Below, one piece after another: positions 26,477-34,830 of a stretch of DNA of 34,830 nucleotides. Every line of letters starts with the position of its first letter. The first letter of the stretch is position 1. The notes under the pieces were generated by a model. That model was not told the origin of the DNA, made no database searches, and was given only the letters and a program-made list of their open reading frames with translations. The DNA comes from Candidatus Shapirobacteria bacterium (GTDB taxonomy: Bacteria > Patescibacteriota > Microgenomatia > UBA12405 > UBA6130): the NCBI GenBank assembly GCA_027039485.1, contig JALWDZ010000016.1, positions 62,528-97,357 of the forward strand. The letters are read 5' to 3'. Position numbers and translations under genes: made by a program.

Positions 26477-27559
26477 ATGAAAATAACGTCAAGAATCCCG
26501 CTGGTATCGGTAATAGTGACCACTAAAAACGAAGAAAAGAATATTGGCAACTGCCTGGAAAGCATTAAGCGCCAAACTTATCCGCAGGAAAGAATAGAAA
26601 TTATTGTTGTTGATAATAATTCGACCGACAAAACTAAAGAAATTGCCCGCCGGTATACCCGGAAGGTTTATAACCGGGGGCCGGAGCGCTCGGCACAGAG
26701 GAATTACGGAATGATTGAGAAGGCAAAAGGGAAATATGTGATGTATCTTGATGCGGACATGATTCTTGCCAAAACGGTGATTGAGAGAGCGGTGAAAAAA
26801 TTAGAAATAGATAGAAATATACTCGCTTTGCTCGTGAAACATGTCCCGATTGCATCGGGACGAAATATGTCCCGCAAGCGGGACGAAATAAAGGGAAATA
26901 AAATAGTTGCTCTATATATTCCTGAGGTAGTACTGGGTAACTCCTTTTGGAGCCGGGTGCGGCGGTTTGAGAGAAGTTTTTATGACGGAACAGTGATTGA
27001 TTGTGCCCGAATAATGCGAAAAGATGTCTTTGAAAAGGTGGGTGGTTTTGACGCCTCACTTACTGGCCCAGAAGATTGGGATTTAGATAAAAAATTAAGA
27101 AAGATGGGAAAAGTGGAGCTGGTGGGGAGGTATGATTTTGAAGAAATAAATAAAAAAATAGAAAAAATAGAAATAACTAGAAATATGGTCGCCAAAGGTG
27201 ACCGAAATATGCCCTTCGGGCGAAATAAACTCGCTGGCGCGAGCGAAATTGAGAAATTGGTAAATTTGACCGATGAGGCGGTGATTTTCCACAATGAGGC
27301 AGAATTTAATTTACAGGAATATTTGCAAAAGAAAGCTTATTACGGCCAAAGCTTTGCGAAATATATTAAGAAATGGGGCAAAGATGACCCTGATATCAAA
27401 AAACAATTGGGTTTTTGGTACCGCTACTTCGGTGTGTTCACTGAAAAAGGAAAGTGGAAGAGACTAATTCGCCATCCAATTTTGGCAATAGGTATGTTCT
27501 TTTTGCGCTTCTTAGTCGGATGGCAATATTTAAAGGGAAAGGTGCATAGTAAAAGTTAG
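26477..27559 (+). CDS. GT2-family glycosyltransferase containing two in-frame hairpin-array insertions
   Basis: VSVIVTTKNEEKNIGNCLESIKRQTYPQERIEIIVVDNNSTDKTKEIA...YVMYLDADMIL...GPEDWDLDKKLRK. Confidence 0.85.
   Translation: MKITSRIPLVSVIVTTKNEEKNIGNCLESIKRQTYPQERIEIIVVDNNSTDKTKEIARRYTRKVYNRGPERSAQRNYGMIEKAKGKYVMYLDADMILAKTVIERAVKKLEIDRNILALLVKHVPIASGRNMSRKRDEIKGNKIVALYIPEVVLGNSFWSRVRRFERSFYDGTVIDCARIMRKDVFEKVGGFDASLTGPEDWDLDKKLRKMGKVELVGRYDFEEINKKIEKIEITRNMVAKGDRNMPFGRNKLAGASEIEKLVNLTDEAVIFHNEAEFNLQEYLQKKAYYGQSFAKYIKKWGKDDPDIKKQLGFWYRYFGVFTEKGKWKRLIRHPILAIGMFFLRFLVGWQYLKGKVHSKS
26843..26884. repeat. Hairpin array A (in CDS)
   Basis: GTCCCGAT-TGC-ATCGGGAC (26843-26861), cgaaatat, GTCCCGC-AA-GCGGGAC (26869-26884), followed by gaaataaa. 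Confidence 0.85.
27187..27243. repeat. Hairpin array B (in CDS)
   Basis: GGTCGCC-AAA-GGTGACC (27187-27203, one G-U), gaaatat, GCCC-TTC-GGGC (27211-27221), gaaataaa, CTCGC-TGGC-GCGAG (27230-27243), cgaaatt. Confidence 0.83.
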
Positions 27560-27615
27560 AATATCGCTAGCAATGGCTGAGATATAAATGATAAACTAAA
27601 ATTCAAGAAGAAATT

Positions 27616-31858: not shown

Positions 31859-32767
31859 ATGAACCCTAATAAGAAAGTGTCAGTGGTAATCCCAACCATG
31901 AATAGGGCTGATGATGTAATAAATTGTATAAAGTCGGTGTTGGCTTCCACATATAAGAATATTGAAATAATTGTGGTTGACAATGCATCTAGTGATAATA
32001 CAACTGCTCAAATTGAGAGAATTTTTTCAAAAAATAACAAAATTAAGTTAATCAAAAGTGCAATTAATTTAGGGGCTGCTGGCGGTAGAAATAGAGGAGC
32101 GAAAGAAGCCACCGGAGATTATTTATTATTTGTAGATAGCGATAATGTTGTAGATAAGGAGATGATAGGCGAATTAGTACGTTTTTTTAATAATCATGAG
32201 AAATGTGGAATGGTTGGCCCTCTAATGCTTTACAAAAGAGACCCTAAGATTATATGGCTATATTTCGCCGATATAAATATGTTCACCAGCCAAGCAAAAT
32301 ATAAGGGGACAGGGGAAAGAGATAGAAAACAATATAGCAAAGTTATCGAAGTAGGACATTTGCCCAACTGTTTTATGGTGAAAAAAGATGACTTTATAAG
32401 AGTTAGCGGATTTGATAGCAAGTATATAATAATGTACGAGGAGGCTGATCTTGCAGAAAGAATAAAGAGAGAGTTAAATAAAAAGATTTATCTGTATTCC
32501 GCAGCAAGAACATTTCATAATGTAGAACTTATAAGAAATAAAAAGAAAAATGGGTTTCTGTTTAGCTCAGAGCGCAGGGCCTATCTTACAGGACGAAACA
32601 GGGTTTATTTTATGAGAAGAAATGCTTCTCTATTGCAATTATTGTCTTTTTTCTTTGTATTTAATCCACTTATATTACTTTACTATGAAATCAACTTGCT
32701 AAAAAGCGGTCAGATTAAGCAGGCATGGGCTTATCTCTATGGCAATATAAAAGGGTTTCGGCTATGA
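31859..32767 (+). CDS. GT2-family glycosyltransferase
   Basis: VSVVIPTMNRADDVINCIKSVLASTYKNIEIIVVDNASSDNT...NLGAAGGRNRGAKEATGDYLLFVDSDNVV. Confidence 0.88.
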   Translation: MNPNKKVSVVIPTMNRADDVINCIKSVLASTYKNIEIIVVDNASSDNTTAQIERIFSKNNKIKLIKSAINLGAAGGRNRGAKEATGDYLLFVDSDNVVDKEMIGELVRFFNNHEKCGMVGPLMLYKRDPKIIWLYFADINMFTSQAKYKGTGERDRKQYSKVIEVGHLPNCFMVKKDDFIRVSGFDSKYIIMYEEADLAERIKRELNKKIYLYSAARTFHNVELIRNKKKNGFLFSSERRAYLTGRNRVYFMRRNASLLQLLSFFFVFNPLILLYYEINLLKSGQIKQAWAYLYGNIKGFRL

Positions 32768-34830
32768 AAGAGCGCAAAAAAACATTATTGGTTGTTTTAT
32801 TATTTATCTTTATTACCCACTTAGTGTTGTCAAAGATCCTTTTTAATGACCGACTACTTGGAAGGTCAATAGATTTTTCCGTTCCTCCAGTAAGTTTTTT
32901 AATGAAAAATGTTTATTTGACAAGCTTTTTTCAGTGGTGGATAAAGCCAAATGGTGGTGGTGTTGGTGTTTTTCCGGCTACACTGATTCCTGTGAATTCT
33001 ATCTTATATTTTCCTCTTTTATTTAAACTGGGGTCTTGGTTTATTGCTAGATATCAAATTGTCTTGACAGTTTTTTTTGCGATGTTTTCTTTTTATCTCC
33101 TGTCTAAAAGAATATTGAGAAAATATGCGCTAAAAGAAGAACACAAAACTTTTTTGTCTATTGCTGGGGCTCTTTTTTTTACTTTGAATAATTACTTATT
33201 TTTGGAAATTATATTTGGGAGCAGTGTAATGTATCTAACATTTTCTTTTATTCCGTTGCTATTGTACTCGGTGATTTCTTACCAAGAGGGTAAACGGAAA
33301 ACATTCTTTTTCGTTCTCTCTCTCTTATCCTTGCTCATAATATCTTCAACATTACAACATTTTATTCTGGCTTACATTTTATTATTGCTGCTATCTTTTA
33401 TATATGACGATATAAAATTATTTTTTAAATTAGCATCAGTTCATTTTTTATCTAGTCTTTATTGGATTCTCCCATTATTAAATGCCTTCTTTGGGGCTAG
33501 TGGTTTAAAAATACCAGTTGCAACAAATTGGACTACTAGCCTGAAAATATCGAGTTCAAAATTTATAGATGCTTTGGTAAACAAGGAATACTTTTCTAAT
33601 AGGAATATCTATAGTTTAGCTCTTGGCAATCGTTTCCTGCAATTATTATGGCTTTTTAATGCGTTTATTCTATTAGCAATTTCCTTATCCTGTTTATGGC
33701 ATTTGAAATACTATAGTAAAAAAGAGAGAAAGACGGTTTTTGGTTTATTCATGATCTTTTCTTTCTCCCTCTTGTTTATTAAAGGCGCTCGTGCGCCTTT
33801 TGGCCATTTTGTTTGGTTTTTATATAACAATTTCAAAATGTTTGCCCTGTATAGATCTCTTCAGCACTATATTAGTTTTTATGTAATATCTGTGTCCACT
33901 CTGTTTATATTCTCCGGAGTGTATTTAGTTAAAAAAAATAAATATTTCCTTTATTTCGCAGGTCTTTTGGTTTTTGTAAATAGCATGCCTTGGTGGCTAA
34001 CTCGCGATCTAGGGACTAAAAATATTGTTTCTACAAATAGAATATCATCCTATTTTGGGCAGTTTTATCTAACAAGAGGGGATATTTTAATGTACGAGCT
34101 TAATAAGCTGCCGTCGGATTTTGCAATTATGCATATCCCTCCCGCTTTTTCTGTTAATTTTTTAGCCGTCGGGAAAAATAATTTTGACTATATAATACAA
34201 GGAAATAAAAAAATAAAAAGCCAAGGCGGCGATGCTGGTTTAGCCTATGGGAATAAGCGTTTTTTCTCCGCAGAAAATTCTTCTATTTTCAAGGATTTAT
34301 TAGATTATCTAGAGGAAGGAGTATATACAGAACAAAGTTTTTTTAATAAAAATAAGTATATATTTCCCTTGCTAAATATTAGGTATTTTGTCTTGCGGAA
34401 AGATGTAGCGCCGCTTTTTTCCAAGAATGCGAAACTTTTTAACGCACAAAAAGTTGGAAAATCAATTTTGGGAGCCAGCATTTTCTCGTTAGTAGAAAGC
34501 CACGATTTTATTACTATTGCAAAAATTGATGATAAATATTTTCTTCCCCATTTCTACCTCCCCCATCACATAATTTACTCTCCTAATGACATTAATGCCT
34601 TGCCGGAGATTGTGGGGATGCCGGGGTGGAAATTGAGGACGGCGATATATTTGGCTGCGAAGCAGCCGGATACAAATAGAAACATGCTCGCTAGCGCGAG
34701 CGATACAAGCTCGCCCCGCCACAGCGGGACTCGCGAAATACGCCCTACGGGCGATATAAAGAGAAACATGCCCCGCAAGCGGGGCGATATTGATAGAAAC
34801 CTATCGGGGCGGGATAGGGAAATTTTGGAG
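32764..34830 (+). CDS. Large polytopic membrane protein (GT-C/YfhO or DUF3367-like), runs off window end; absent from supplied ORF track
   Basis: ATG 32764 overlaps the preceding TGA (ATGA). Checked line by line: 689 codons open to position 34830, MKERKKTLLVVLLFIFITHLVLSKILFNDRLLGR...KGARAPFGHFVWFLYNNFKMFALYRSLQHY...GMPGWKLRTAIYLAAKQPDTNRNML. Confidence 0.8.
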   Translation, partial: MKERKKTLLVVLLFIFITHLVLSKILFNDRLLGRSIDFSVPPVSFLMKNVYLTSFFQWWIKPNGGGVGVFPATLIPVNSILYFPLLFKLGSWFIARYQIVLTVFFAMFSFYLLSKRILRKYALKEEHKTFLSIAGALFFTLNNYLFLEIIFGSSVMYLTFSFIPLLLYSVISYQEGKRKTFFFVLSLLSLLIISSTLQHFILAYILLLLLSFIYDDIKLFFKLASVHFLSSLYWILPLLNAFFGASGLKIPVATNWTTSLKISSSKFIDALVNKEYFSNRNIYSLALGNRFLQLLWLFNAFILLAISLSCLWHLKYYSKKERKTVFGLFMIFSFSLLFIKGARAPFGHFVWFLYNNFKMFALYRSLQHYISFYVISVSTLFIFSGVYLVKKNKYFLYFAGLLVFVNSMPWWLTRDLGTKNIVSTNRISSYFGQFYLTRGDILMYELNKLPSDFAIMHIPPAFSVNFLAVGKNNFDYIIQGNKKIKSQGGDAGLAYGNKRFFSAENSSIFKDLLDYLEEGVYTEQSFFNKNKYIFPLLNIRYFVLRKDVAPLFSKNAKLFNAQKVGKSILGASIFSLVESHDFITIAKIDDKYFLPHFYLPHHIIYSPNDINALPEIVGMPGWKLRTAIYLAAKQPDTNRNMLASASDTSSPRHSGTREIRPTGDIKRNMPRKRGDIDRNLSGRDREILE
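34686..34818. repeat. Hairpin array C (in CDS; probably continues past window)
   Basis: GCTCGC-TAGC-GCGAGC (34686-34701), CCCGC-CACA-GCGGG (34715-34728), GCCC-TAC-GGGC (34742-34752), GCCCCGC-AA-GCGGGGC (34770-34785), CCTATC-N7-GATAGG (34800-34818), joined by cgaaata/cgatata/gatagaaac linkers. Confidence 0.85.

What the first reader, a model, noticed from the sequence alone, without database searches (positions are those of the whole stretch)
26821..34830. Modular protein-embedded hairpin arrays: the same short palindromes with 'AGAAAYATG-[hairpin]-CGAWATA' linkers in two unrelated genes
Seen directly: about ten short hairpins in three clusters (26843-26884, 27187-27243, 34686-34818), separated by near-constant AT-rich linkers (cgaaatatg, cgaaataaa, cgatata, agagaaacatg, gatagaaac). 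Individual hairpins recur between clusters more than 7 kb apart: ACTCGCTGGCGCGAGCGA vs GCTCGCTAGCGCGAGCGA, GCCCTTCGGGCGA vs GCCCTACGGGCGA, and ATGTCCCGCAAGCGGGACGA vs ATGCCCCGCAAGCGGGGCGA. All lie inside long open reading frames (a GT2 and a membrane protein) without breaking the frame. Inference: an uncharacterised family of modular, frame-tolerant palindromic elements, comparable in concept to Rickettsia palindromic elements but made of interchangeable mini-hairpins on a shared linker. It may be spread by an unknown transposition or replication-slippage process.
Basis: partly seen in the sequence, partly recalled or inferred. Interest (0 to 1): 0.92.

Follow-up and report, generated by a model that had tools for sequence, protein, structure and literature searches.

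The report
Hairpin-studded insert hotspots in CPR genes
Short self-folding DNA pieces with a fixed border and freely changing stems sit in frame inside surface-sugar genes of this tiny bacterium and in the same genes of many groundwater relatives, so a known kind of repeat (palindromes inside genes) appears here in a new, modular form whose gain and loss can be seen between close relatives.

Summary
The window carries about eleven mini-hairpins in three clusters inside two genes. Units with both borders, GAAAYAT[hairpin]GAWAY, number 5 in the window; dinucleotide shuffles give 0. Selecting on borders alone, the next three pairs were complementary in 6/6 window units and 20/31 units from metagenomic homologues (about 0.5 expected), and stem pairs switch between C-G, T-A and G-C. 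Both GT2 clusters are in-frame insertions: homologues lack them, and AlphaFold places them in low-confidence loops of a well-folded enzyme. In this 695 kb genome I found the elements only in one ~12 kb locus, split between two contigs. The grammar recurs with different stems in about a dozen metagenomic homologues, in all three reading phases and between genes. The same insertion sites hold at least six other repeat vocabularies elsewhere; near-identical loci differ by clean hairpin indels. Intragenic palindromes are already known (REP, RPE); membership in GTAG/CGTC REPs was tested and not met. How they spread is unproven; I favour local slippage or template switching over a dedicated transposase.

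The parts
26477..27559 (+). GT2 glycosyltransferase gene carrying two in-frame hairpin clusters
   Evidence: PF00535 E=9.5e-29; homologue G068 aligns in three blocks that skip both clusters
26804..26893 (+). Insert 1 (aa ~110-139), three hairpins plus GAAAYA linkers
   Evidence: absent in 10/10 GT2 homologues; the same site is at empty length (29-31 aa) in 67 of 110 database homologues and filled with other sequences in most others; pLDDT 64-68 against >90 in the core
26821..26835 (+). ACTCGCTTTGCTCGT, imperfect hairpin with a 2x2 internal mismatch; similar units in L177, L214, L218 and G084
26843..26861 (+). Hairpin GTCCCGATTGCATCGGGAC (sits in another reading phase from its neighbours)
26869..26884 (+). 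Hairpin GTCCCGCAAGCGGGAC (type B)
   Evidence: exact core 6 times in this genome, all at this locus
27173..27241 (+). Insert 2 (aa ~233-255), three hairpins
   Evidence: absent in 10/10 homologues; P0033 and P0035 share only the NMVAKGDRN / NIVAKGDRN peptide; pLDDT 44-58
27187..27203 (+). Hairpin GGTCGCCAAAGGTGACC
   Evidence: flank-only selection, then complementary; encoded peptide also at this site in P0033/P0035
27211..27221 (+). Hairpin GCCCTTCGGGC (type C)
27230..27243 (+). Hairpin CTCGCTGGCGCGAG (type A, left border AAATAAA)
32725..34830 (+). 5' part of a large membrane-protein gene (some homologues have PF11847 hits); cut by the contig end just after the array
   Evidence: collinear homologues match this ORF and then the C26 ORF L016:7696-9390 (-)
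34679..34818 (+). Array 3: A - D - C - B and a CCTATC..GATAGG hairpin, direct orientation, GAAAYA/GATAYA linkers
34686..34701 (+). Hairpin GCTCGCTAGCGCGAGC (type A)
34709..34734 (+). Hairpin GCTCGCCCCGCCACAGCGGGACTCGC (type D)
   Evidence: also on C26 as GCTCGCCCCGCCACAGCGGAGCTCGC
34742..34752 (+). Hairpin GCCCTACGGGC (type C)
34770..34785 (+). Hairpin GCCCCGCAAGCGGGGC (type B)
34800..34818 (+). Hairpin CCTATCGGGGCGGGATAGG after linker GATAGAAA
   Evidence: sequence; folded

Best explanation
These are units of a mini-hairpin repeat family. Each unit is a GC-rich hairpin of mostly 11-21 nt (up to 24), with a pyrimidine-rich 5' arm and outer pair G-C or A-T, set between constant borders GAAAYAT and GAWAYA, in a linker made of an AT-rich repeat of about 10-11 nt (RTAGAAAYA). 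Units accumulate in direct-repeat arrays at a few permissive places: disordered loops of glycan-locus proteins and the neighbouring intergenic spacers. Shown: the family, its covarying stems, its insertion status, its frame tolerance, clean presence/absence of hairpins between close loci, and the use of the same sites by other repeat vocabularies. Inferred: arrays grow and turn over mainly by local replication-associated copying. Slipped mispairing between the GAAAYA direct repeats adds or removes hairpin+linker cassettes; intra-hairpin template switching (quasi-palindrome correction, known from other bacteria) keeps stems complementary while their sequence drifts; selection keeps only arrays that leave the frame open and lie in loops. 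Gene clusters carrying arrays probably move between lineages by horizontal transfer, which would explain why this genome has them in one locus only.
For: Family: (60 units, 51 distinct hairpins). Covariation: flanks-only test 6/6, 7/10, 20/31 against about 1/64 per match, three pair types at pairs 2-4. Insertions: homologues with empty sites, low-confidence loops. Frame tolerance: all three phases used, 41 same-sense and 7 opposite intragenic units. Local copying: all 14 hairpin-bearing pattern hits and all exact B cores lie at one locus; the composite A-B-C (~85 nt) occurs 3-4 times in two genes there at 91-98% identity; identical hairpins 2.0% of pairs within a genome/contig against 0.46% between. 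Slippage: the borders are direct repeats; tandem-unit indels of 15-24 nt and one 64-nt hairpin+linker cassette indel (L177/L218) among related loci. Clean hairpin indels: CCTGCCTGTCCGGCAGGCAGG (21 nt) and a 36-nt hairpin pair in L214 not L163, a 30-nt one in L189 not L159/L161/L164, no target duplication seen. No RAYT-like gene in 428 kb of metagenomic loci.
Against: Slippage does not explain where unrelated new stems come from, nor the clean hairpin indels in linkers without long direct repeats (L163/L214). The within/between difference in identical hairpins rests on few pairs. Confinement to one locus is known only for this genome. Whether the indels are gains or losses was not determined. 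Template switching was not tested directly. A RAYT gene lies between two arrays on C26 and could be read as a mobiliser.
Confidence: 0.45

Rival explanations
1. REP-like mobile hairpins: the units are non-autonomous elements moved or copied as single strands by a Y1/HUH transposase (RAYT or IS200/IS605 type) that reads the 5' border as a guide and the hairpin largely by shape.
For: Hairpin plus conserved 5' foot is the architecture recognised by TnpA-REP, whose demands on stem and loop differ between systems (PMC8266576). A REP-associated transposase ORF lies between two arrays on C26 (NCBIfam REP_Tyr_transpos E=1.4e-15, below that model's cut-off), one of only two Y1 matches in the genome. 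Clean hairpin presence/absence. Same hairpin types in different lineages.
Against: No GTAG or CGTC tag next to these hairpins; borders on both sides are constant. No RAYT in 73 metagenomic loci, 428 kb. RAYTs are common in relatives where pattern scans found no such arrays: 35/57 genomes with a Y1 match, scans. The RAYT ORF contains its own, different GTAG-led palindrome (GTAGGGGCGAAACCATGTTTTCGCCC). Copies in this genome are confined to one locus.
Confidence: 0.27
2. Selected RNA or protein function: the hairpins act in the mRNA (pausing, stability, processing), or the encoded hydrophilic linkers are useful spacers, and the arrays are kept for that.
For: Units lie mostly in the sense orientation (41 to 7 inside genes, 7 of 8 between co-directional genes); strong pyrimidine 5' arm / purine 3' arm polarity.
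Against: The same sites are empty or hold unrelated vocabularies in homologues; reading phase and peptide vary for the same hairpin; sense bias inside genes is partly forced by stop codons in some frames of the linker.
Confidence: 0.15
3. Ordinary low-complexity protein repeats whose DNA happens to be palindromic, with no DNA-level element.
For: Peptides such as RNMxRKRD recur.
Against: The same hairpin is read in different phases (RNMRLHRE against KYAASPRN); hairpins also occur between genes; stems covary across loci.
Confidence: 0.03
4. Assembly or chimera artefact at contig ends.
For: Two array groups abut contig ends of this genome.
Against: Two clusters are internal to a contig; metagenomes of other projects show the same grammar; the contig break is explained by the repeats themselves.
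Confidence: 0.02

Closest known systems
GTAG- and CGTC-tagged REPs, including intragenic REPs (PMC3733652)
   Same: Small stem-loops with a conserved unpaired foot, in several copies, sometimes inserted in frame inside genes, often clustered
   Different: Constant border on both sides (GAAAYAT / GAWAYA), no GTAG or CGTC, arrays in direct rather than head-to-head orientation, freely varying stems, units mostly of 11-21 nt
BIMEs / REPINs with RAYT (PMC8266576, PMC3116915)
   Same: Mosaics of several palindrome types joined by linkers (A-B-C, A-D-C composites here)
   Different: No demonstrated RAYT dependence; not found dispersed through this genome
Rickettsia palindromic elements (RPE; discussed in PMC3733652)
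   Same: In-frame insertions of palindromic DNA in coding regions, tolerated at permissive points
   Different: From memory, RPE-1-type elements are about 100-150 bp units of defined sequence dispersed in many genes; here mini-units on a linker with interchangeable stems, arrays in one locus
Cyanobacterial small dispersed repeats and tandem heptamers (own knowledge, not read here)
   Same: Very small palindromic repeats associated with short tandem repeats
   Different: Other sequence, host and location; relation not tested
[quoted passage not shown]
   Same: Coding tandem repeats with dyad symmetry at the DNA level, probably spread horizontally
   Different: PARCELs are a conserved 25-residue protein motif; here the peptide is not conserved and the reading phase varies

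Membership tests
GTAG/CGTC-tagged REP | Unpaired GTAG or CGTC tetranucleotide at one foot of the stem-loop | tested here: not met
   Units found from the right border alone show GAAAYAT before the stem, or TACAA/AATAC for type C; no GTAG or CGTC at either foot
GTAG/CGTC-tagged REP | Short stem-loop, stem 5-13 bp (GTAG) or 8-9 bp (CGTC) | tested here: met
   Perfect outer stems, where present, mostly 5-9 bp; fits the GTAG range
REPIN/BIME with RAYT | Inverted (head-to-head) pairing of units | tested here: not met
   Units within arrays are in direct orientation
REPIN/BIME with RAYT | Cognate RAYT gene flanked by the repeats | tested here: inconclusive
   One RAYT ORF between arrays in this genome, none in 428 kb of other loci
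Rickettsia palindromic element | Palindromic insertion in coding sequence, absent from orthologues, frame kept | tested here: met
Rickettsia palindromic element | Sequence similarity to a described RPE family | not tested
   No RPE consensus was compared
Rickettsia palindromic element | Copies dispersed over the genome in unrelated genes | tested here: not met
   All own-genome hits at one locus
PARCEL | Conserved 25-residue amphipathic repeat | tested here: not met
   Peptides differ by hairpin and by phase

The most novel reading that the evidence does not exclude
A hairpin system recognised by shape and border rather than by stem sequence: an unidentified single-strand transposase or recombinase inserts short hairpins between GAAAYA borders, so that stems can change freely while the family persists, and different Patescibacteria lineages run parallel versions with their own borders.
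Probability: 0.2. Interest if true: 0.85.

Novelty: new variant of a known kind. Interest (0 to 1): 0.62.

Why it matters
Tiny, streamlined CPR genomes are not expected to carry growing repeats inside enzymes. Here orthologous loops act as landing or growth sites where each lineage writes its own repeat vocabulary, and hairpin presence/absence can be seen between loci 92-98% identical. That makes the old question of how small palindromes arise and spread in bacteria testable from metagenomes, and it warns that such inserts distort annotation, alignments and assembly (this genome broke at one).

Tried and rejected
Exact-linker scans: GTDB genome contigs gave 20 chance hits and no true unit; viral contigs chance hits only; metagenomes with the double-linker pattern 0. 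Class, phylum and family pattern scans found arrays only in G000, with one weak related pair in G084. A peptide-only protein search found nothing. RAYT as the mobiliser: first thought likely because it sits between arrays, downgraded. PDB sequence search of the RAYT gave nothing useful. Genomes closest by the C-terminal domain (G055, G098) show no such arrays by pattern or in the locus read. Whole metagenome records could not be scanned, so genome-wide density in those hosts is unknown.
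Full report
WHAT IS THERE. The window lies at the right end of contig C16 of a 695 kb, 97% complete genome in 27 contigs. The GT2 gene 26477-27559 carries two clusters and the 5' part of a large membrane-protein gene (32725 to the contig end) a third. 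The pattern GAAAYATG-N6-30-CGAWAYA gives 15 hits in the genome against 1 for the reversed control: 5 in the window and 10 at the end of contig C26, 14 of the 15 being hairpins. The core CCCGCAAGCGGG is exact six times, all at these two contig ends. An ~85-nt composite A-B-C has four matches there at 91-98% identity. Sixteen homologues match the C16 ORF and then the C26 ORF in order, so the two contig ends are two halves of one gene, and the arrays found form one locus of roughly 12 kb (the gap length is unknown). The next gene on C26 (463 aa) carries another A-B-C array, and a REP-associated transposase ORF lies between.

NOT CHANCE. Hairpins with both borders: window 5 against 0.000, C26 7 against 0.003, 73 non-redundant metagenomic loci 18 against 0.000 in dinucleotide shuffles. 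To avoid circularity I selected on borders alone and then asked whether the next three pairs are complementary: 6/6, 7/10 and 20/31, with about 0.09, 0.16 and 0.48 expected. Over 26 distinct hairpins, pairs 2 to 4 are C-G, T-A or G-C. With a relaxed border the outer pair is also seen as A-T (AGCCGCTTCGCGGCT, ATCCCGCAGAGCGGGAT). The 5' arm is pyrimidine-rich (176 of 224 positions), so the units have a polarity.

INSERTIONS. The best genome homologue of the GT2 (G068) aligns in three blocks that skip the two clusters. Of 110 database homologues compared, 67 have site 1 at the empty length of 29-31 aa and most of the others hold unrelated fillers there, such as SPVSNIQYPVSSIPP or NSKSKIDSKLKIQNSK. 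Two close homologues, P0033 and P0035, carry the peptide of the GGTCGCC..GGTGACC hairpin at site 2 but not those of the next two hairpins, and their site 1 is nearly empty, so several hairpins differ between close homologues. AlphaFold on 41 sequences gives pLDDT 88 overall; the two inserts are the main low-confidence stretches (64-68 and 44-58), between helices and strands of an otherwise confidently folded enzyme.

A WIDER FAMILY. A metagenome search with the big gene returned 80 loci. About a dozen carry the same borders with other stems: GCGGCTTCGCCGC, GTCCCGACGTCCGTCGGGAC, GGCTTCTTCGAAGCC, GACTCCTTCGGAGTC, GTCTCGCAAAGCGAGAC and more. Units lie inside genes and between them, mostly in the sense direction (41 to 7 inside genes), in all three reading phases; similar hairpins are read RNMRLHRE in L199 and KYAASPRN in L177. 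Some positions are orthologous: the 463-aa gene of this genome and its counterparts in L168, L177, L209, L214 and L218 carry an array at or near the same point after MFLVVGV or its equivalent. In the linkers GAAAYA recurs every 10-11 nt, and neighbouring units lie about 22-24 or 32-33 nt apart.

A HOTSPOT WITH MANY VOCABULARIES. At the site FSESFHxGWKLY | YGEIVASYF, 53 homologues hold 13 to 73 residues; by simple motif counts about seven different DNA vocabularies occur there, GAAAYA hairpins being one. Between loci 92-98% identical I found clean indels that are hairpins: 21 nt (CCTGCCTGTCCGGCAGGCAGG) and 36 nt (two hairpins) in L214 but not L163, and 30 nt in L189 but not L159/L161/L164; others are tandem-unit changes, and 15 of 17 clean indels are multiples of three. 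These three hairpin indels are in other linkers than GAAAYA; for the GAAAYA family itself the indel evidence is one 64-nt cassette (L177/L218).

MECHANISM. Shown: family, covariation, insertion status, frame tolerance, presence/absence, shared sites. Inferred: local slippage between GAAAYA repeats plus intra-hairpin template switching, filtered by selection for open frames and loops, with occasional horizontal transfer of the locus. The transposase alternative stays open: the architecture resembles REP (PMC8266576) and a RAYT lies nearby, but no RAYT occurs in 428 kb of other loci, RAYTs are common in relatives without arrays, and the local RAYT carries a different, GTAG-led palindrome.

AGAINST WHAT IS KNOWN. 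Palindromes inside genes are described for REPs and RPEs (PMC3733652). This family lacks the GTAG/CGTC tag, has constant borders on both sides and direct-repeat arrays, and I found no paper describing it (open-access library only). I therefore call it a new variant of a known kind.

LIMITS. The elements were sought by pattern, so degenerate copies elsewhere in the genome may be missed. Metagenomic loci were all obtained through one gene family, so their concentration in it is partly ascertainment. Gene calls in metagenomic loci were made with a crude ORF caller. Vocabulary labels come from simple motif counts.

Noticed in passing
window 1374-2285, insert around 1465-1515: Another GT2 gene holds an in-frame filler of a different vocabulary (AAATTCC/AAATCCC repeats) around the palindrome CCTGCCTGCGCAGGCAGG; L214 has a near-identical combination and L163 the form without the hairpin.
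   Followed up: partly
L016:7079-7687 (-): REP-associated tyrosine transposase ORF with HUH motif that itself contains in-frame palindromic DNA led by GTAG (GTAGGGGCGAAACCATGTTTTCGCCC).
   Followed up: partly
L049 (genome G244) around 1300-1750: Similar architecture with other borders: AT[variable hairpin]GCCACAG, three different stems nearby; may be a parallel family in another CPR lineage.
   Followed up: no
L275-L297; L291:1501-1519 (own genome C1:12178-12196): Palindrome TCCCGACGTNACGTCGGGA occurs in 23 of 290 class members in unrelated flanks; in the own genome it directly follows a tRNA-like 5' half, upstream of an intact tRNA-Ile.
   Followed up: partly
window right end (34830) and L016 right end: Two contig ends are the two halves of one gene; the assembly broke in or near the hairpin array.
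   Followed up: yes
window 19958-20155: Intergenic stretch of AAATCCTAATT-type repeats with GCCTGCCTGCGTGGGCAGG, an inverted match to the insert at 1465-1515.
   Followed up: no
P0045 compared with P0048 and P0053: Nearly identical GT2 proteins from metagenomes differ by about 14 residues at insert site 1 (P0041 has about 7 extra), probably further hairpin indels; DNA not available here.
   Followed up: no
window 5635-13998: Run of five similar large membrane-protein ORFs in tandem with shared motifs, probably a duplicated glycosyltransferase-like family.
   Followed up: no
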